Program-made: the position numbers and the translations under genes | Shown here: in pieces, positions 1-35,571 of the stretch | How positions within the stretch are numbered: position 1 is the first letter of the stretch | Layout: each line of letters opens with the position of its first letter | From: Brachyspira innocens ATCC 29796 | GTDB lineage: Bacteria > Spirochaetota > Brachyspiria > Brachyspirales > Brachyspiraceae | DNA length: 43,351 nt | Reading direction: 5' to 3' | NCBI RefSeq assembly: GCF_000384655.1 | Contig: NZ_ARQI01000106.1 | Coordinates: 1 to 43,351 of the forward strand | The notes under the pieces: model-generated | The model's database searches: none | Told to the model about the DNA's origin: nothing | Seen by the model: only the letters and a program-made list of their open reading frames with translations

Positions 1-182
1 GCTTTATTTTTTTTAATATGTTTTAATTAAATCTTTTGAGTTTTCACTTCAAAAAGCACACCCGCCCAAAGCATTATTTAAATTTAAGGCTTTCCTAAAC
101 GCACGCAGAACGATTTTTTTTAATATAGTTTGATTAACAAATATAATTTATTTTATATATAAGGATTAGTTTAACGTGCGTT
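1..182 (-). repeat. Dispersed 349-bp-family repeat, truncated at window edge
   Basis: This is a reverse-oriented partial copy of the repeat that forms the tandem array at 17349-18130. It holds the arm CCCGCCCAAAGC followed by TTTAAATTT (61-86). It also holds the palindromic core bounded by AACGCACG (98-105) and CGTGCGTT (175-182), 85 bp long. The sequence before position 1 is not visible, so the copy may continue. No coding potential is seen. Confidence 0.8.
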
Positions 183-4579: not shown

Positions 4580-6187
4580 ATGAAGCGTAAATTATTATTA
4601 ATACTCTCTTTTGCCTTAATGATATTTGTTTTATCATGCGGCAAAAATAAAACTGATGAAGGAGCAATATATATCAATGTTGGTCCAGAACCAAAAACCA
4701 TAGATCCTGCTTTAAACTCTACAGTTGACGGCAGCATTTATATTCAGCATGCTTTTGAAGGACTAGCTACAAGAGATAAAGATAATAAAATAGTAGGGGG
4801 CGTTGCTGAAAGCTGGGATATAAGTGAAGACGGTTTAACTTATACATTTCATATAAGAGATAATGCCAAATGGTCAGACGGCAAAAAAGTAACAGCTGAA
4901 GATTTTGTTTATGCTTGGCAAAGAGCAGTAGATCCTGTAACAGCATGTGAATATGCTTATCAGTTGGAACCTGTATTAAATGCTATGGATATTAATTCCG
5001 GCAAAAAAGAAGTTTCTGAATTAGGAGTAAAAGCAATAGATGAAAATACTTTAGAGGTAAAATTAAATGCTCCTACAGCTTATTTTTTAGAGCTTGTTGC
5101 TTTTCCTACTTTCTATCCTATTAGAAAAGATATAATAGAAGAAAATGGCGATAACTGGACTTTATCTCCTGAAACTTATATAGGAAACGGTCATTTTGTA
5201 ATGACTGAAAGAAGAACTGATGACAGATTAATAATGTCAAAAAATACTAATTACTGGAATGCATCAAGTATAGTTCCTGAAAAATTAGTGTTTATACTTA
5301 TGCAAAACGGTACTGCAGCAGTTGCTGGTATAAAAGAAGGATCTATACATTTTGCTAATAATCCTCCGCTTCAGGATATTGAAAACTTAAAAAGCGAAGG
5401 CTTAATGCATATCTCACCATACTTAGGTACATATTATTATTGTCTTAATATCACAAATGAAGCATTAAAAGATGAAAGAGTACGTAAAGCATTAACACTA
5501 GCAATAGACAGAAACTATTTGACAGAGCAGGTAACAAGAGGTGGACAGCTTCCTGCAAGTGCTTGGGTACCTAGCGGAGTAAGTGATATTGATAATGCTG
5601 ATTTTAGGGAAGTAGGAGGCGATTATTATAGTGTAAAATCTGAAGATTATCAGAAAAATCTTGAAGAGGCCAAAAAACTTATGGAAGAAGCAGGCTACAC
5701 TAATGGAGAAGGTTTCCCAGTAATAGAGTTTAAATCCAATTCTGGAGAGCATATACAGATATTTGAAGCCGTACAGCAGATGTGGAAAGAAGGCTTGGGT
5801 ATAGACTCTACCATATCACAGGAAGAATGGGCTACTTTCCAAGACACAAGACAGCATAAAAACTTTGTTATAGCTCGTCATGGCTGGATTGCTGATTATA
5901 ATGATCCTATGAGCTTTTTGGGAGTATTCTTAAGCTACAGTGTTCAAAATAATGGAGGATATTCAAATAAGGCTTATGATGATAAATTAAAATTGGCTAT
6001 GTCTACTATAGATCAGAATATAAGAATGAAAGCTATGCATGAAGCTGAAGATATACTTATGAATGATATGGCATTAATACCAATTTATTTTTATACTGAT
6101 CCTATTATGATTAGTAAAAAATTATCAGGGGTTGTATTTGATCCTCTAGGTTCTCATAAGTTTTTCTATGCAAAGTTAGCTAAATAA
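4580..6187 (+). CDS. oppA: Oligopeptide ABC transporter substrate-binding lipoprotein (OppA family)
   Basis: 535 residues, typical of family 5 extracellular solute-binding proteins. The lipoprotein signal has lipobox VLSC, with the modified Cys near residue 20. Family landmarks follow in order: GPEPKTIDPALN, the AFEGLATRD region, AESWDISEDGLTYTFHIRDNAKWSDG (the SBP_bac_5 signature region), VYAWQRAVDP, and the C-terminal lobe with ARHGWIADYNDP. It would bind peptides outside the inner membrane and deliver them to an OppBCDF permease. No permease or ATPase genes lie beside it, so it is an orphan binding protein or one of several paralogues. The ribosome site is a weak AGGAC. It has its own promoter and terminator. 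Confidence 0.92.
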   Translation: MKRKLLLILSFALMIFVLSCGKNKTDEGAIYINVGPEPKTIDPALNSTVDGSIYIQHAFEGLATRDKDNKIVGGVAESWDISEDGLTYTFHIRDNAKWSDGKKVTAEDFVYAWQRAVDPVTACEYAYQLEPVLNAMDINSGKKEVSELGVKAIDENTLEVKLNAPTAYFLELVAFPTFYPIRKDIIEENGDNWTLSPETYIGNGHFVMTERRTDDRLIMSKNTNYWNASSIVPEKLVFILMQNGTAAVAGIKEGSIHFANNPPLQDIENLKSEGLMHISPYLGTYYYCLNITNEALKDERVRKALTLAIDRNYLTEQVTRGGQLPASAWVPSGVSDIDNADFREVGGDYYSVKSEDYQKNLEEAKKLMEEAGYTNGEGFPVIEFKSNSGEHIQIFEAVQQMWKEGLGIDSTISQEEWATFQDTRQHKNFVIARHGWIADYNDPMSFLGVFLSYSVQNNGGYSNKAYDDKLKLAMSTIDQNIRMKAMHEAEDILMNDMALIPIYFYTDPIMISKKLSGVVFDPLGSHKFFYAKLAK

Positions 6188-20927: not shown

Positions 20928-21596
20928 ATGAAAAATAAAATTAAAATACTTATAGATATAATAATGACTGTTCTTTTTTTTGTATTAATTGGGTATCGTT
21001 TTACAGGTCGTACTATACATGAATATTTGGGCTATTTGATTTTTATATTTTTTATACTTCATCATATACTGAATTTTCATTGGTATAGAAATCTTAATAA
21101 AGGAAAATATAGTTTAAATAGAATATTAAATACATTTATAAACTCTATGTTTCTTATATGTATGCTTGGATTAATTATAAGCGGAATATTATTTAATAGA
21201 AATGTAGTTGAATTTTTTAATCTTGAAGGCATTAAAGTATTTAATAAAAGACTGCATATAATCTGCTGTTATTGGGGACTTGTATTGATGTCTGTACATT
21301 TAGGCATGCATTGGGGTATGTTTATAAATATGAGTAAGAAATTGATAAATATAAAAAAGCAAATATATATGATAACTGCTTTATTAGTAGCTGTATACGG
21401 AGTGGTTTCATTTATAAAGAGAGGTATATATATAAGATTATTTTCAGTTACAAGAGTACCTCCTTATGAAGAGGCTTTTATATTTTTTCTTATTGATCAT
21501 TTAGCTATAATGGGGCTTTTTATATTTATTACATACTATTTACATATATTAAGCAATAAATTAAATAAGGTTAATGTTATAAGCAAAAAACTTTAA
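20928..21596 (+). CDS. DUF4405-like membrane cytochrome b protein
   Basis: 222 residues from the start chosen here. An in-frame ATG at 20871 adds 19 residues, but AGGGG lies 11 nt before 20928 and the first helix begins right after it. There are about five to six hydrophobic helices. Paired histidines in helices (HEYLGYLIFIFFILHHILNFHW and RLHIICCYWGLVLMSVHLGMHW) resemble the heme-binding pattern of DUF4405/cytochrome b561-like proteins. Such proteins often pass electrons across the membrane to flavin-binding partners. No FMN-binding partner lies next to it. The substrate or partner is unknown. Confidence 0.75.
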   Translation: MKNKIKILIDIIMTVLFFVLIGYRFTGRTIHEYLGYLIFIFFILHHILNFHWYRNLNKGKYSLNRILNTFINSMFLICMLGLIISGILFNRNVVEFFNLEGIKVFNKRLHIICCYWGLVLMSVHLGMHWGMFINMSKKLINIKKQIYMITALLVAVYGVVSFIKRGIYIRLFSVTRVPPYEEAFIFFLIDHLAIMGLFIFITYYLHILSNKLNKVNVISKKL

Positions 21597-22226
21597 AATT
21601 AGATATAAAGCTTCATATTACGACATTTTTTACGTACTGTTAATTGGTATAATACATATACTACTTTTAGCTAAAAAAGTTATATATTTTAGGTTTATTC
21701 TTATAAAAAAATTTGTTTAACTAACATTTGGCAATTTTGGAGTATAGCATAAATGCGAGTATATAGCTAAACAACTATAATTTATCAAAAATTAATTTTT
21801 TAAATATATTCTGGTTTTATTAATATGTAAAAGTATTTTTATGTATTAAGCAGAGATGATATATTACTGCATAAATAATTCAGCATTTGTATGGCTTATA
21901 TATTTAAGCTGTACAAATTCATTTTTTAGTCGATAGTTTATAAGTTTTTATGAATGCTCTGCTGCGTTATGTATAGATATAAAAAAATAGATATGAAAAA
22001 ATATGACTATGCAGCATATAAAACATTATTTTTATAATATTATAATTTCATAATAAATTTAAAATGTATATATATAATTACGAAAAACTGAAAAAAATTC
22101 ATAATTTTTATCAAAGATAATGTTAAAAAATTCTGGAAATACGGAAAAATTTAAATAAATCATACATTTTTTTCATTATTTGTATGGTTAACAGAACATT
22201 TTTCCTAATAATTCATACTTACGATG
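21597..22226. other. Long intergenic region upstream of vsp1
   Basis: No gene is seen in these 630 bp. It contains AAAAAAATTTGTTTAACTA at 21705-21723, repeated exactly at 23765-23783 before the G tract. It also contains a copy of the dispersed repeat ACAACTATAATTTATC...TTAATTTTTTAAAT at about 21767-21806. The remainder is AT-rich with an imperfect repeat around GCTCTGCTGCG (21956-21966) and ATGCAGCATATAAAAC (22010-22025). Confidence 0.5.
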
Positions 22227-22254
22227 TTGACTTTTTATAAAAATTATGTAGACT
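22227..22254 (+). promoter_or_regulatory. Promoter of vsp gene 1
   Basis: TTGACT (22227-22232), a 16-bp spacer and TAGACT (22249-22254). The same layout, with a TATAAA in the spacer and TAGACTAA at the -10, recurs before the second vsp gene, which supports the call. Confidence 0.65.
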
Positions 22255-22275
22255 AATAAGTAGAGGATCTTTATG

Positions 22276-22314
22276 GTGTCTATTGAGTTACTTAAGCAAT
22301 CTCTCAGTAGACAC
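22276..22314 (+). promoter_or_regulatory. 5' leader stem-loop of vsp gene 1
   Basis: GTGTCTATTGAG (22276-22287) pairs with CTCAGTAGACAC (22303-22314), with one G-U pair and a 15-nt loop. It lies near the 5' end of the predicted mRNA, about 36 nt before the start codon. There is no following T tract, so it is not a terminator. An mRNA-stabilising or regulatory role is inferred. Confidence 0.7.
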
Positions 22315-22350
22315 TGTCAAAAGACTATAAAAAATTTAGGAGAAAAAACA

Positions 22351-23466
22351 ATGAAAAAAGTTTTATTGACAGCTATGGCTATATTAACCGTAGCAAGTGC
22401 TTCTGTGTTTGGTATGTATGGTAACGCTGATTCTTGGATTGACTTCCTTGTGCATGGCAACCAATTCAGAGCTAGAATGGGTCAATTAGGTTTCACATTA
22501 GGCAACGGCACTATTAAAGGTACTTTCGGTTTCAAAGCTGACACAGGATATATGGGTTCTATTCTTGTTGCTCAAACAGGAAACGACAATAAGGAGTTTG
22601 ATTGGACTCGTTTAGATGCAACACTTTCTGCTGGTATAGGATACACTTCTGATGCATTTGGTATAGGTGTTGGTTATAACTATACTATGAAAGCTAATGA
22701 TGGTTCTGGAATACATACTCCAGTATTAACTATAAATGCTTTAAATGACAACTTAAGAATAGCTATACCTTTCCAAATAGCTGCTATGAGTAAAGACAAT
22801 CAAGATTCATATGGTATAAAAGATTATATGGGTATAAGAACTGATATTCAAGTAAGATATTATACTGGTATAGATGCTTTCAATGCTATAAGATTCTACT
22901 TAAAATACGGTCAATCTGGATTTACTTCTACAAGAGCTTTATATGATAATAAATATGCTGCTTCTTCTTTGGGTTTACAATTAAGATTATATTTCTTAAA
23001 CACTACTATAGGAAATGTTAATGTTAACCCATACATCAAATTGGTATACAATACAGCTATAAAAGGTTCTTCTGCTAGTGTTGGTTCTTACAATAGTCTT
23101 AATACTGCAGGAGTTTTTAATGGTCCATATTCATCAGGATCAGCAGGCGATACAGGTGCATATGACTTTACTATAGCTCCAGTATTGGGTTTAGGTGCTA
23201 ACAGCGATATAGTAAGCGTATGGTTTGAACCTTCTTTAGGTTACAGTGTAAGTGGTGCTAAAAACTCTGCTTTGACTCACAAACTTGCTTGGGGTGCTTA
23301 TGCTGAATTATACTTGACTCCTGTTGAAGACCTTGAATGGTATTTCGAGCTTGATGTTAATAACACAGATTCTACTGTATATGTTAGACAAGGTTCTACT
23401 CCAGTATACTTTGAAACTTCTACTGGTATCACTTGGTATCTTCCTTCTTTGGGCGGAGATCAATAA
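22351..23466 (+). CDS. Brachyspira variable surface protein family, copy 1
   Basis: 371 residues from the chosen ATG, which AGGAG precedes; an in-frame ATG 78 bp earlier would read through the leader hairpin and is rejected. The signal peptide has core LLTAMAILTVASASVFG, then MYGNADSWIDFL. The mature part is rich in aromatic/Gly beta strands (GFTLGNGTIKGTFGFKA, FGIGVGYNYTM, QVRYYTGIDAFNAIRFYLKYGQ, TGITWYLPSLGG), as in an outer-membrane beta-barrel. This matches my memory of the roughly 39-kDa Vsp/Bhmp39 family of Brachyspira, abundant surface antigens. It is a tandem paralogue of 24047-25162 with the same length. It has its own promoter and terminator. Confidence 0.88.
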   Translation: MKKVLLTAMAILTVASASVFGMYGNADSWIDFLVHGNQFRARMGQLGFTLGNGTIKGTFGFKADTGYMGSILVAQTGNDNKEFDWTRLDATLSAGIGYTSDAFGIGVGYNYTMKANDGSGIHTPVLTINALNDNLRIAIPFQIAAMSKDNQDSYGIKDYMGIRTDIQVRYYTGIDAFNAIRFYLKYGQSGFTSTRALYDNKYAASSLGLQLRLYFLNTTIGNVNVNPYIKLVYNTAIKGSSASVGSYNSLNTAGVFNGPYSSGSAGDTGAYDFTIAPVLGLGANSDIVSVWFEPSLGYSVSGAKNSALTHKLAWGAYAELYLTPVEDLEWYFELDVNNTDSTVYVRQGSTPVYFETSTGITWYLPSLGGDQ

Positions 23467-23502
23467 TAGTTTGACAGACTATAACTCATAGAGTTTTTAT
23501 AC

Positions 23503-23538
23503 AGAGGCTTAAACTTCGATAGTTTAGGCCTCTTTTTT
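23503..23538 (+). terminator. Rho-independent terminator after vsp gene 1
   Basis: AGAGGCTTAAACT (23503-23515) pairs with AGTTTAGGCCTCT (23521-23533) around a 5-nt loop with one G-U pair. T's follow to 23538. Confidence 0.9.
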
Positions 23539-23981
23539 CTTCATATATATAACTTTCAATTAATACAGGTCATAACCTTAAATTCATTATTAAAATATTC
23601 ATTTTTCATTAGGCGGTTTTCAAATACCTATTATTTTTAGCCTATAAAAAATAATTGGCTTGTTTCAAAACTATTTATAGCTGCTGTGGCTAGGCTGTTG
23701 TAGGCACAGCTCTAATATGTAAAATTTATATTAAAAAAATTAGCATTTCTTGGCTTATTTTGTTAAAAAAATTTGTTTAACTATAAAGGGGGGGGGGGCG
23801 GGTACAGTAGATTGTAAATAAAATTTACATTATTTTTTCACCTCGTATCCTTATATGAAATACAGGCTTATTATTATACTTTCTGGAAAATATATTAATG
23901 ATTATTTGAAAAATGCATATAAAAACAATATTAAAAAAAATTAGATTTTTTAAAAAAATCAAAAAATTTTTTGAAAAAAAT
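23539..23981. other. Intergenic region between the vsp genes
   Basis: No gene is seen. It contains a hairpin-prone GCTGTGGCTAGGC...GGCACAGC piece (about 23681-23711), a CTTGTTTCAAAAC fragment related to the inverted repeat at 13321, the 19-bp motif shared with 21705-21723, the 11-G tract, and poly-A/T rich sequence just before the vsp2 promoter. Confidence 0.5.
23788..23798 (+). repeat. Homopolymeric G tract (11 G), possible phase-variation element
   Basis: Eleven consecutive G's, then C and GGG, in otherwise very AT-rich DNA. The tract lies about 184 bp upstream of the -35 of the second vsp gene and about 250 bp before its start codon. Such tracts change length by slipped-strand mispairing in other bacteria; whether this one does is not shown. 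Confidence 0.85.
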
Positions 23982-24010
23982 TTGAATTCTATAAATAATT
24001 TTCCTAGACT
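23982..24010 (+). promoter_or_regulatory. Promoter of vsp gene 2
   Basis: TTGAAT (23982-23987), a 17-bp spacer and TAGACT (24005-24010). It shares TATAAA within the spacer and TAGACTAA at the -10 with the vsp1 promoter. The predicted leader is only about 30 nt and has no hairpin. Confidence 0.65.
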
Positions 24011-24046
24011 AAAGCTATAAAATAAAAAACATTAGGAGTGAGAAAA

Positions 24047-25162
24047 ATGAGAAAATTTTTATTAACGGTAATGGCTATTTTTGTATTGGCATGCGGTTCA
24101 GTGTTTGGTATGTACGGTGCGGATAATACTTGGCTTTTCTTCCTCATTCATGGAAATCAATTAAGAGCTAGAATGAATCAGCTTGGCTTTACACTAGGAA
24201 ACGGCACTATTAAAGGTACTTTTGGTTTTAAAGCTAATACTGGATTAACTGGTCAGATTTTTACATCAAGAGCAAATACAAATTTAGAAGCTACTATATC
24301 TGGAGGTATAGGATATACTGGTGATGGTTTCGGAGTTGGCGTGGGATACAATTATACTATGAATAATGTTTCAGGTATTAAAATGGTTGATGCTCATACC
24401 CCTGTAGTAGTATTTAATGCTGTTAATAATAATTTAAGAGTGGCAATACCTGTAAGTATAAGTAAAAAAGATGATGTAGGAAATGGAAGAACTGACTATT
24501 TAGGTTTGAGCATACCTGCACAGGTAAGATACTACACTGGAATAGATGCTTTCAATTATATAAGATTTGAATTTAACTATGGTCAAAACTCTTATAAACA
24601 AGGTGGAGAAGAATATTCAGCTAAAAATTTAAGTTTCCAATTAAGACTTCATTTCTTAAATACTATAATAGACAATGTAGTTGTTAATCCATTTATAAGA
24701 ATAGATTTCGCTTCTGCTTTAGATGCTAAAGGAAAAGCTGCTATAGTTGGAACTCTTAATGGCAGTTATACTACTGATATTAAAGCATGGACTGTTGCAG
24801 GTGCCTCTAAAGCAACTGCTGGCCAGGAAGCATATGACAGAAACCCTTATGACTTGAGAATACTACCTAGTATATCTTTAAGCGTTAATACTGATATTGT
24901 AAACTTTATATTTGAACCAGGTTTAGGATATAGGGTTGAAGATGACGGAATAAAAGGAAGCAAACTTGTACACAGTTTATATTGGTCAGCATACGGAGAA
25001 GTTTATGTAAGACCTATAGAGGCTTTGGAATGGTATTTTGAAATGGACGTAAATAACGGAGTACCTAAAATACAGTCTCCAGTAAATAGTTTGCCTATAG
25101 CATTCGGTGCCAACACTGGTATAACTTGGTATTTACCTTCTTTAAATCCTAATGCTCAGTAA
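24047..25162 (+). CDS. Brachyspira variable surface protein family, copy 2
   Basis: 371 residues. The ATG at 24047 has GGAG 8 nt before it; an in-frame GTG at 24038 overlaps that GGAG and is rejected. The signal peptide core is FLLTVMAIFVLACGSVFG, then MYGADNTWLFFLIHGNQ. The Cys in the signal (LACG) looks like part of the hydrophobic core and not a good lipobox, though lipidation is not excluded. The body is collinear with copy 1: GFTLGNGTIKGTFGFKA, GFGVGVGYNYTM, VRYYTGIDAFNYIRFEFNYGQ and the C-terminal TGITWYLPSLNP. It would be an outer-membrane surface antigen. The G tract upstream could affect its expression. Confidence 0.88.
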   Translation: MRKFLLTVMAIFVLACGSVFGMYGADNTWLFFLIHGNQLRARMNQLGFTLGNGTIKGTFGFKANTGLTGQIFTSRANTNLEATISGGIGYTGDGFGVGVGYNYTMNNVSGIKMVDAHTPVVVFNAVNNNLRVAIPVSISKKDDVGNGRTDYLGLSIPAQVRYYTGIDAFNYIRFEFNYGQNSYKQGGEEYSAKNLSFQLRLHFLNTIIDNVVVNPFIRIDFASALDAKGKAAIVGTLNGSYTTDIKAWTVAGASKATAGQEAYDRNPYDLRILPSISLSVNTDIVNFIFEPGLGYRVEDDGIKGSKLVHSLYWSAYGEVYVRPIEALEWYFEMDVNNGVPKIQSPVNSLPIAFGANTGITWYLPSLNPNAQ

Positions 25163-25186
25163 AACATCGTTGTCATAAAATATAAA

Positions 25187-25234
25187 GGCAGGGTTAAAAA
25201 ATAGTATTACAATTTATCCCTGCCATTATTTTTT
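25187..25234 (+). terminator. Rho-independent terminator after vsp gene 2
   Basis: GGCAGGGTTAAA (25187-25198) pairs with TTTATCCCTGCC (25213-25224) with one mismatch. ATTATTTTTT follows. Confidence 0.85.
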
Positions 25235-25235
25235 A

Positions 25236-25445
25236 ACTTTATTCTAATCCCCGCCCTTTTAGATTTAAAAGCTTTATTTTTTATATAAACTTTGATTAAA
25301 TCTTTTAAGTCTTCACTTCAAAAAGTGCACCCGCCCAAGCGTTATTTAAATTTGTAATTTATACATCGCACGATAAATAAAAAACTAGTTAATAATCCGC
25401 TCTGAATTATTAACTAGTTTATTTTTTTAATCTATTTACCGTGCG
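25236..25445 (-). repeat. Dispersed 349-bp-family repeat, partial copy
   Basis: Read on the minus strand it has the core bounded by CGCACGGT-like and CGTGCGATG ends (25364-25445), then the arm AAATTTAAATAACGCTTGGGCGGG, then AAATCTAAAAGGGCGGGGATTAG. Its interior differs from other cores: AACTAGTTAATAAT (25383-25396) and ATTATTAACTAGTT (25406-25419) form a perfect 14-bp stem followed by T's, which could also act as a terminator. The 3' end of vsp2 abuts the GGGCGGGG side. Confidence 0.8.
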
Positions 25446-25463
25446 TATTATAATAAATAAAAA

Positions 25464-28400
25464 TTAATCTCCAAAAACACTTTTCACTATACTGTAAATT
25501 GAAGAAGCAAATCTTTTTTCTACTTTTAGAGGATTAATTAGAGTTTCAATGCCGTCATTTATCTCGCAAAACTCTATATCGCCAAACTCAATATCTTCAT
25601 TAGCGTCCATTCCAAAATACATATAATCAAATGAAATATGAACAGCAATATTAAGATAAGTATCTTTTAATATGTACTCAGAGAAAGTTCCGCCGTCCAT
25701 AGTCTCGCCTCTAGCCATGTCATATTTATTTGCTAATGACATCAATACGCCTGCTTTTATTTTTTTGGAATTAAGAGAAGTAATTTTATTTTCACTTATA
25801 TCTTTTTCTGTAATATCAGAATATTTGAAATCAAGCTGTTCTATAGGCTGTGATATCTCATAGTCTGATAATTGAGTTTTCCATTTTGCTATAGTGTCAG
25901 AGTTTAATTCTGAAGGGTGTACTAAAGTTATTAAAGCATTTTCTTTGAGAGTGTATTCTTCTTCATCAACTGTATTGAAAGTGCCGTCTTCCATATATCT
26001 GAAACTTTCTATTAAATTGTTATTCTCATCATAAACGCCCCATATTAGTTTTAATGCGAATAGATTCATTATAGGGTTTTCAACAAATACAGTTTTGAAA
26101 TTATTATAAGTCCATTTTCTGCCGTTTAATAATACTTTCTGAAGTCTTATTTTCTGACTCTGTATTAAAGTTTTTATTTCTTTTTTGAGAGCAGTGCATT
26201 CTTTTTTGGCGTTATCTGCTTCTGTTTTGTCATCTTTGCTGTTTGGAGCTGGGAGCGATTTTATTATTTTTTGTTTGTCATTATCTGTTATTGTGAGTTC
26301 AAGATCATTGTTTATTGATAATGTAAATGTTCTTTTTGCCTCTCCTCCATAGCTTAAAACTTTTTCTCCTTTTCTGTCAAATCCGAAATTAGGTATTATT
26401 CTGTCTGAAAGCTCATCGGCTGTCATATCAAGTAAGTATGCAACATTTTCCATAGTCTCTATTGCTACTTCTTTTATTTTTGCAGTAGGTGCTTTTCTTG
26501 TGAGGCTGTCTACCAATATTAATGCATAGCTTTTTCCGTTTAATGCGATACATTTTACAATAAATGCCCCCATAACAGTACGGGAACCTTTAGCAAACTC
26601 TTTTATAAGAGGATAAACTTTATCTATCTTTGAATTATTAGAATATAAAAGATAAGGTATTAAAATATTTTTCTTTGTTGCTTCGTAATTAGAATCTTTC
26701 CAATAAATATATAACATTTCCAAAGCATTGGTAAATGAATCAATATCAAGAATCTCAGTAAGCATATCGCAGTCTTTTAATCTGGCAGGCTCAACTAAGT
26801 TCATATATTCCATAATAATATATTTAAATATTCTCTCATCAGCCAATTTTCCATTATTGTATAAAACTTTTGTCAAATGAACATCATCTAAAAACTTAAT
26901 ATTTTTTTCATAATTTGTATTGTAATAAGTATCTATAAACTCCAAAGCCTCATCAATACTTTTGAAATTATCGCCGTATTTTTTAAGATTCCAATTCTTA
27001 ATAATATTTTTTAATGCCCCTTTAAGTTCTGATGATCTTATTTTCTCTGACATCTTTTCAACATATTCTCTTGTAATAGCTTCATTATCAGAAATAGCTT
27101 TAATACAATATCTTTTTACTTCGGCTCTCTTTGTATTTTCAAGAACTGTATAAACTAAATGATAATCATTATAATGACATTTATTATACAAAGTCTTTAA
27201 TATATCTAATGCTGTATTTTTATTTGATGCTATATTATCTTTTATAAACTTATCATCATTTAATATATTTACCACTTCATCAAAATAGCTTTTAAATAAT
27301 TCATCTTTTACGCTATTTATAATAACATTATTATTTTCATCTACGCATCTAAGCTCTTTATATAATGTAGGAAGACATTTTCCGCCATAGTCGTAATAAT
27401 AATTTGAAAAATCTCCTGCATAATCAAAATAGTATGAAGTGAGAATTTCTTTTAATGTAATATTTAATTCTTTATTATTTAATAAACTATCAATAACTTC
27501 TTTTAAAGTTTTCTTTCCTATAGATGCCTGCACTTCTATATATTTTCTTATTCCAAGCTGAATTGGTAAATATTTAAAAATATCAATAGCAAACTTTTTA
27601 TAGTTTTTCATTTCATCGCTGTCATAATTAAATAAAGAGTATAAATAATAAAGTTCTGTATCAAGACTAACTTCAGGAAGGCTATCCCATCTGTTGCTAT
27701 ATAGATTGTATGCATTTTTTTTGTCTGTATAATATTCAATAAGCGTATCAAAGAGTTTATTTTTATCTTTATCAAATATTTCTTCTATTTTTACTGTAGT
27801 TGTAAATGTTGGTCTCTTATTATATCTATTAGATTTATCTTCTGTAAATTTATTAACTATAGTTTGAAATACAGGTATAGACTTTTTTAAATTATTTGCG
27901 TCTATATTATTATCATTATGCTCTAATAAAACACCGCTAAGTACTATAAATATTCTTTTGTTTCTATCATTTTTTAAATCATTTCCTACTAAATTATAAA
28001 CTTTATAAAAATCTTCTTTATAGTTTAAATATAAATCTCTTGCTCCATAAATAAACTCATAACGAAAATAATCTTCAAAATGTTTTGCTATAAATATAAA
28101 AGAGTTTGGATAATTTATTGCTTTGAGGAATTTATCTTTGGCTTTATAAGGATTACTGTAATCTAATAATCTTAAATACTGTCCAAGTTCAATATTCATA
28201 TCAATAATATATTCTTCATTATTATTTAATACTTCTACAAATTTATTTTTTATAGCTTCGTTTTTATCTAAAAGAGAAGCAATTACATTTAAAGTGTCAT
28301 AAAGATTTGGCAAAACATCAAATGATTTTATAGCAGCATTTATGTATTTATCATCGCATTCTTTATTATTTTTTATAACAGAACATATTGCAATCAATGG

Positions 28401-34857: not shown

Positions 34858-35571
34858 ATGAAATACATTAAAAACTCTATAATATTTTTTATAGTTTTCA
34901 TCTTTTTCTTATCATGTTTATCATGCAGTAATTTGACTACAGGTATTAAAAGTGCTCAGAAACTGAAAGATAGGGCGGGCAGATATTCTCTTAATGTAAA
35001 CTTTGAAGAAGATATTAAACTTGACTTTATAGTATTTGATACTGGAGATATTAATTTTATAGGAAGCAGAAATAATATTGCCAATAATTTAGGAACATAT
35101 TTTTTAGGAAACCCTGAAAGCACAAATAAAACTTTTTCATTTGATATAAAAGAGACTATAAACGGAGTAGAACCTAACACGTATTTTATAGATTTTTTTT
35201 ATTACACATTGAGATATTCAGGAAATGAAGTAAATTTTCAAAAAAAATCAGACAGTACAAATATAAAAATAAGTGAAAGAATTGGTGTTTATTATAGCAA
35301 GGATAAATTATATAATATAACTGTAAACTCTGAGAGAATATCTTGGAGCTATTTTCCAGATGCTTATATTGATATAACTAATCCATACACTGAAGATACA
35401 GTTTTTACAAAAACAGCGAGCTTTACCAATGAAAAAAGTGGAACAGTTTATAATTTTACACTTAAATTCGTTTTTACTGACAATGCTCTGAAACTCACTT
35501 TCAATATTACAGATCCTTCGTATTCTCAGTATAATAAACAAGATGAAGAGTATAGAATATCTTGGCAATGA
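34858..35571 (+). CDS. Lipoprotein of unknown function
   Basis: 237 residues. The signal peptide has a long hydrophobic core (IIFFIVFIFFLSCLSC); the lipobox can be read LSC with Cys at about 20 or 23. The remainder is beta-rich (YSLNVNFEEDIKLDFIVFDTGDINFIG) with no known domain. It might be a lipocalin-like or sandwich fold, but this is not shown. Spirochaetes carry many such surface or periplasmic lipoproteins. The ribosome site is a weak CGGAT. The glycosyltransferase gene starts 32 bp downstream. Confidence 0.8.
   Translation: MKYIKNSIIFFIVFIFFLSCLSCSNLTTGIKSAQKLKDRAGRYSLNVNFEEDIKLDFIVFDTGDINFIGSRNNIANNLGTYFLGNPESTNKTFSFDIKETINGVEPNTYFIDFFYYTLRYSGNEVNFQKKSDSTNIKISERIGVYYSKDKLYNITVNSERISWSYFPDAYIDITNPYTEDTVFTKTASFTNEKSGTVYNFTLKFVFTDNALKLTFNITDPSYSQYNKQDEEYRISWQ

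What the first reader, a model, noticed from the sequence alone, without database searches (positions are those of the whole stretch)
23788..23798. Eleven-G tract between two variable surface protein genes
A run of 11 G's in extremely AT-rich DNA is most unlikely by chance and is a known substrate for slipped-strand length change. It lies upstream of the second vsp promoter, just after a 19-bp motif (23765-23783) that is exactly repeated upstream of the first vsp gene (21705-21723), where no G tract exists. It might switch vsp2 expression or mark a recombination junction.
Basis: partly seen in the sequence, partly recalled or inferred. Interest (0 to 1): 0.7.

Follow-up and report, generated by a model that had tools for sequence, protein, structure and literature searches.

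The report
Quadruplex-type repeat beside surface-protein genes
The odd run of eleven G's is one altered copy of a repeated DNA module of Brachyspira bacteria, in which a promoter-like sequence shared with DNA-repair and recombination genes runs straight into a sequence able to fold into a four-stranded G-quadruplex, and copies of which recur beside variable surface-protein genes.

Summary
The 11-G run (23788-23798) is real, unique in its 3.28-Mb genome and not chance. It is not an isolated slippery tract. With the next four bases it forms GGGGGGGGGGGCGGG (23788-23802), a 15-nt minimal G-quadruplex (G4) motif. It sits in a dispersed Brachyspira module whose other copies read GGGTGGGCGGGCGGG or GGGCGGGTTTGGGTGGG. 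The P box also lies about 25-60 nt upstream of ssb, comM/YifB, radC, a nuclease and Rpn-type nuclease genes, so it looks like a promoter of a recombination/competence-type regulon. Solo P boxes run directly into a G4. Such modules recur between vsp genes in five genomes, and also in defence islands and beside hsdS genes. The module is absent upstream of all three examined orthologues of the second vsp gene, whose own conserved promoter begins ~120 bp further on, so a length switch of vsp2 is unlikely. Transcription-coupled G4 formation, as at Neisseria pilE, is my preferred mechanism, but it is inferred. Gene-conversion signs did not track the module, and an inert repeat remains a serious rival.

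The parts
23721..23839 (+). Copy of the dispersed P-box/G4 module
   Evidence: query 258-373 (window 23724-23839) matches G004 at 83% and query 265-373 matches own C72 at 84%; many shorter matches, all 26 genomes searched have some match to the query
23752..23783 (+).
23788..23802 (+). G11CGGG = G3N1G3N1G3N1G3 G-quadruplex motif; same length as GGGTGGGCGGGCGGG of other copies, with two loop letters changed to G
23807..23828 (+). Weak AT-rich hairpin (-4.9 kcal/mol) after the G4, present in related copies; not called as a terminator
23916..24046 (+). vsp2 upstream/promoter block conserved in relatives; promoter-like TTGAAA-17-AATAAT at 23971-23999
22351..23466 (+). vsp1 (PF05540)
23503..23533 (+). 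Intrinsic terminator of vsp1, between vsp1 and the module
24047..25162 (+). vsp2 (PF05540)
21689..21760 (+). P box with one mismatch, followed by a degenerate Rpn gene start; no G4

Best explanation
The G run is the G4 part of a dispersed Brachyspira module in which a promoter-like box (P), shared with recombination/competence-type genes, abuts a G-quadruplex motif. In this copy two of the three loop letters have become G, which yields G11 without changing the length. SHOWN by sequence: module identity, the P box and its gene set, four conserved G3 tracts with more variable loops, and recurrence beside vsp genes. INFERRED: P is a promoter that starts RNA at or inside the G4. When its regulon is switched on, transcription opens the DNA, the G-rich non-template strand folds into a G4 (with an RNA-DNA hybrid on the other strand), and the site becomes a local starting point for recombination or breakage next to variable genes. 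Length change of the run, if it happens, would mainly alter G4 loops rather than switch vsp2.
For: P box: 87 exact sites in 18 of 26 genomes against 1 reversed-pattern control; with 1 mismatch, 66 sites in 7 genomes against 0. The N14 spacing is the same before ssb, ComM-like, RadC, SNase and Rpn genes, with start codons about 25-60 nt on (Pfam). 25 of the 87 exact P boxes have GGG 3-8 nt downstream; 2 of these are radC upstream regions (one by kinship to a Pfam-checked RadC, one by box similarity only). Of 96 distinct P boxes (2 mismatches or fewer) in fetched loci, 44 fit a four-tract G4 template and 29 are intact. Tract letters change in 22 of 528 cells, loop letters in 26 of 180 (Fisher 1e-5, copies not independent). 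Modules between or beside vsp: window, G004 (7 P boxes), G006 (2), G021 (1), G022 (1), all on the vsp strand. Intact G3N1 motifs within 1 kb of a vsp gene: 6 of 58 in 7 genomes, 0.37 expected.
Against: No transcription, G4-folding or recombination data. The sigma-70 scan found nothing at P. vsp clusters in G007 and G008 carry no module, and their paralogues are as mosaic or more so: longest shared stretches 201 and 53 nt, against 59, 71 and 50 nt in G004, G006 and G022. In 4 of 7 genomes no intact motif lies near a vsp. Many G4 motifs lack a P box (4 of 4 such G004 sites inspected). The module is absent at 3 of 3 vsp2 orthologues.
Confidence: 0.45

Rival explanations
1. Inert or selfish repeat: the module spreads like a small non-coding repeat, or is left over from Rpn-type loci, and collects in tolerant regions such as vsp clusters and defence islands. 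The G4 has no role for the host.
For: Tandem and degenerate copies; Rpn genes often adjacent or decayed; mosaicism of vsp genes does not follow the module; absent from orthologous loci.
Against: Four G3 tracts keep better than loops in a 27% GC genome. Two loop classes (1-1-1 and 1-3-1) both keep four tracts. The P spacing is constant across unrelated genes.
Confidence: 0.3
2. RNA-level control: P drives a transcript headed by an RNA G4 that reads toward vsp2 (or Rpn) and modulates its expression.
For: P, G4 and vsp2 lie on one strand with no strong terminator between them; in L210 a P-G4 leads straight into an Rpn gene.
Against: About 245 nt and a conserved separate promoter block lie before vsp2; most solo modules inspected lead into no open frame of 100 aa or more within 130 nt.
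Confidence: 0.12
3. Slipped-strand length change of the G11 run switches vsp2 on and off.
For: G11 is long enough to slip (general knowledge). Brachyspira has other poly-G runs that look like contingency loci, but these are mostly inside open frames.
Against: The run lies 118 bp before the conserved vsp2 promoter block and is absent in 3 of 3 orthologous loci; the module has the same 15-nt length as intact copies.
Confidence: 0.06
4. The module is real but the G11 is a base-calling or assembly error: a GGGTGGGCGGGCGGG-like sequence read with G in two loops.
For: Same length, two T/C-to-G differences, draft of 130 contigs, unique in its genome; GG-context T-to-G errors are known from short reads (recalled).
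Against: Forms with one loop letter changed to G occur in other genomes, e.g. GGGGGGGCGGGCGGG in G006 and GGGGGGGTGGGCGGG in G002.
Confidence: 0.07

Closest known systems
Neisseria gonorrhoeae pilE G4 and its G4-associated sRNA (PMC3547852: abstract and Results section 6 read)
   Same: G3-tract G4 with short loops near a variable surface-protein gene; a promoter directly adjacent, so that RNA would start in the G4.
   Different: pilE has one such G4 upstream of one expression locus, its sRNA promoter points away from pilE, and gene conversion from silent copies is proven. Here the module is multi-copy, points toward the downstream vsp, has no proven transcript, and no excess gene conversion was seen.
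Borrelia vls locus G-runs (PMC3585125: passages read)
   Same: Spirochaete, AT-rich genome, G-runs at a variable surface-protein locus, suggested role in recombination.
   Different: There many G3-5 runs lie in the coding strand of the cassettes; here one compact intergenic G4 per module.
Poly-G contingency loci (phase variation; recalled)
   Same: Long G homopolymer near a surface gene.
   Different: Part of a repeat of fixed layout, far from the conserved promoter, and outside any open frame.
Competence/recombination regulon boxes (ComX- or Sxy/CRP-S-type; recalled, with search listing only)
   Same: A constant box before ssb, comM and radC homologues.
   Different: Different sequence; regulator unknown; Rpn genes and solo G4 modules carry the box too.

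Membership tests
pilE-type G4 initiator of antigenic variation | G4-capable motif close to a variable surface-protein gene | tested here: met
pilE-type G4 initiator of antigenic variation | Promoter directly adjacent, transcript starting within the G4 | tested here: inconclusive
   The layout fits (P box 4 nt before the G4), but there is no RNA data and the sigma-70 scan shows nothing there
pilE-type G4 initiator of antigenic variation | Transcript pointing away from the antigen gene | tested here: not met
   12 of 12 P boxes in the five vsp loci lie on the vsp strand; pilE is opposite
pilE-type G4 initiator of antigenic variation | Segmental gene conversion of the antigen gene linked to the G4 | tested here: not met
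   No excess mosaicism in clusters with the module; the highest is in G007, which has none
pilE-type G4 initiator of antigenic variation | G4 folds in vitro; its loss blocks variation | not testable with these tools
   Only a computed RNA G4 energy, -36.0 kcal/mol for both the window 15-mer and GGGTGGGCGGGCGGG
Poly-G contingency locus | Length differs among cells or isolates | not testable with these tools
   No reads or sister isolates of this genome
Poly-G contingency locus | Tract inside the promoter or open frame it controls, kept at orthologous loci | tested here: not met
Serpulina/Brachyspira VSP (PF05540) neighbours | Pfam match over the cut-off | tested here: met
   373.9 and 588.6 bits against 22.9

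The most novel reading that the evidence does not exclude
Brachyspira carries a multi-copy diversity-generating system. A recombination/competence-type regulon switches on, through one shared promoter box, both the DNA-processing genes (ssb, comM, radC, Rpn nucleases) and G4-headed initiator modules placed beside vsp surface-antigen genes and hsdS restriction-specificity genes, so that recombination machinery and its target sites are fired together.
Probability: 0.14. Interest if true: 0.9.

Novelty: new variant of a known kind. Interest (0 to 1): 0.55.

Why it matters
G4-linked antigenic variation is established in Neisseria and suggested in Borrelia, but I found no paper linking G-quadruplexes to Brachyspira (0 papers hold both terms). 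A promoter-coupled G4 module in many copies, tied by its promoter box to recombination genes, would give a directly testable model in an AT-rich spirochaete. It would also explain a G run that otherwise looks like a simple slippage tract. Even without the recombination role, the P box defines a candidate regulon.

Tried and rejected
Slippage switch of vsp2: rejected as unlikely after comparing three orthologous vsp2 loci. vsp-specific 19-bp repeat: rejected, because the box precedes ssb, comM, radC, SNase and Rpn genes. Recent vsp1/vsp2 recombination junction: rejected. Mosaicism as support for a recombination role: tried, result against. Known RNA family: none over the gathering score in 21500-25500; two sub-threshold matches (Thr_leader over the vsp1 terminator, a miRNA family) taken as chance. 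Viral contigs: 0 matches to a P-G pattern. Plasmid collection: no match to window 23600-24046. The strict P-G4 pattern over genome-contig hit only Brachyspira records, 6 stretches (the tool warns that the window's own genome may be left out). Attempt to see an integron- or Xer-type site in the GTTAAA...TTTAAC inverted repeat: dropped, because the repeat is not kept in the gene-linked P boxes. Fuzzy regex scan: timed out, replaced by BLAST. Literature searches for Brachyspira with vsp, G-quadruplex, phase variation, natural transformation/competence and repetitive element: no description of this module seen in the listings, nor in passages read from PMC4476648 and PMC2897892.

Full report
WHAT IS THERE. 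The window is from a Brachyspira-type genome (27.5% GC; two full-length PF05540 variable surface proteins). The 11-G run is at 23788-23798 exactly as stated and is followed by CGGG. No other G or C run of 7 or more occurs in the window, and none of 9 or more in the 3,281,611-base draft. A base-step model expects 1.1e-4 such runs in the window.

IT IS PART OF A REPEAT. Searching 26 Brachyspira genomes with the intergenic DNA showed that window 23721-23839 belongs to a dispersed family. In other copies the place of the G run reads GGGTGGGCGGGCGGG, GGGTGGGTTTGGGTGGG, GGGCGGGTTTGGGTGGG and so on. The window's GGGGGGGGGGGCGGG has the same 15-nt length as the first of these and differs at two loop letters. 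The strict pattern G3N1G3N1G3N1G3 occurs in 20 of 26 genomes, with 9 sites in the own genome. In one search, 44 of 96 distinct P boxes in fetched loci were followed by a sequence fitting a four-tract template, 29 of them intact. Tract letters differ in 22 of 528 cells and loop letters in 26 of 180. The copies are related and the loci were partly fetched by G4 or similarity, so these figures describe conservation and do not estimate frequency.

THE 19-BP MOTIF. It is the end of a two-part box, GGCTTA-N14-TTTGTTTAACTA. The exact box (to TTTGTTTAA) occurs 87 times in 18 of 26 genomes, with one match of the reversed control; with one mismatch in 7 genomes, 66 sites against 0. Of 85 distinct boxes in fetched loci (1 mismatch or fewer), 31 have an open frame of at least 100 aa starting within 130 nt (one of these is probably chance). 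The genes are ssb (PF00436), a ComM/YifB-like gene (PF13541), radC (PF04002), a staphylococcal-nuclease homologue (PF00565) and Rpn-type PDDEXK_2 genes (PF12784). Spacing to the start codon is about 25-60 nt. I read this as a promoter of a recombination/competence-type regulon. That reading is inferred; the sigma-70 scan does not see it. The copy at 21689-21723 upstream of vsp1 is followed by a broken Rpn-like start, so it is a relic of a different locus type and not a vsp element. Without any requirement on what follows, 25 of the 87 exact boxes have GGG 3-8 nt downstream. Two of those are radC upstream regions; the rest are P-G modules, nearly all of them solo.

WHERE THE MODULES LIE. vsp loci: the window; a G004 cluster with five vsp genes, one broken, and seven P boxes; G006, four vsp and two modules; G021; G022. 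All 12 P boxes there lie on the vsp strand. Flanking genes shared by L202 (G006) and L209 (G022) suggest one ancestral locus for these two, so the loci are not all independent. In the own genome, contig C110, two further intact G4 motifs bracket another vsp gene; the one after the vsp is followed by a P box and an Rpn gene start. In G009 a vsp, G4, P box and Rpn gene lie in a row. Six of 58 intact G3N1 motifs in 7 genomes lie within 1 kb of a vsp gene, 0.37 expected for random placement; 4 of the 7 genomes have none. Other places are defence-type islands (restriction-modification, HicA, macro-domain and KAP genes) and the 3' side of two hsdS genes in G002 (PF01420). Contig lengths identify G002 as Brachyspira alvinipulli ATCC 51933. 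Many G4 motifs of the GGGCGGGTGGGCGGG type lie next to ordinary genes without a P box (4 of 4 G004 sites inspected), so the G4 is not confined to the module.

WHAT IT DOES. At the vsp2 locus, the block 23916-24046 is 83-92% identical upstream of three orthologous vsp2 genes (G009, G014, G015), but everything before it is unrelated. The G-run module is therefore a local addition 118 bp ahead of the conserved vsp2 promoter, and a length switch of vsp2 is unlikely. vsp1 has its own strong terminator before the module, while only a weak hairpin follows the G4, so transcripts from P could run toward vsp2. The layout, promoter then G4, matches the Neisseria pilE G4, whose sRNA starts inside the G4 and whose promoter is needed for pilin variation (PMC3547852, abstract and section 6). 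I therefore propose transcription-coupled G4 formation as the mechanism. The main negative result is: vsp paralogues in clusters with the module are not more mosaic than those in clusters without it. The longest shared stretch, 201 nt, is in G007, which has no module. The two vsp genes of the window share at most 23 nt. In addition the orientation is opposite to pilE. So it may work like a pilE G4, but it is not shown to be one.

VERDICT. The run is a variant G4 in a promoter-linked repeat module. Recombination initiation, an inert repeat, or an RNA-level role remain open, in that order of preference.

Noticed in passing
window 61-67, 17465-18145, 25250-25336, 38109-38194, 39216-39625: A second GGGCGGG-bearing repeat family, often with two GGGCGGG about 80 bp apart and ACGCACG/CGTGCGT inverted motifs, in tandem ~348-bp units. 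13 GGGCGGG in the window against 0.17 expected (one belongs to the G11 module, and the one at 34973 lies in an ORF). It flanks the Rpn gene 38222-39196.
   Followed up: partly
L027, L029, L034, L036, L048 (other Brachyspira genomes): Poly-G runs of 9-12 inside methyltransferase-like open frames (name by eye, not Pfam-tested...GGGYILITTPNTDS...). Some frames stop within 6-10 codons after the run, as expected for coding contingency loci.
   Followed up: partly
L009, L019, L062, L157, L159 (P boxes followed by GGGCGTACCC): In several copies the G4 is interrupted by a GC-rich sequence with palindromic parts, starting GTACCCT... after GGGC; possibly a second small mobile repeat using the G4 as target.
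   Followed up: no
genus-wide, e.g. L068, L071, L083, L195, L198: Candidate recombination/competence-type regulon of Brachyspira: one box GGCTTA-N14-TTTGTTTAACTA before ssb, comM, radC, SNase and Rpn genes; regulator unknown.
   Followed up: partly
L213 about 5073-5087, L214 about 4947-4993: P-G4 module or G4 lies just 3' of type I restriction specificity genes (hsdS) in B. alvinipulli.
   Followed up: partly
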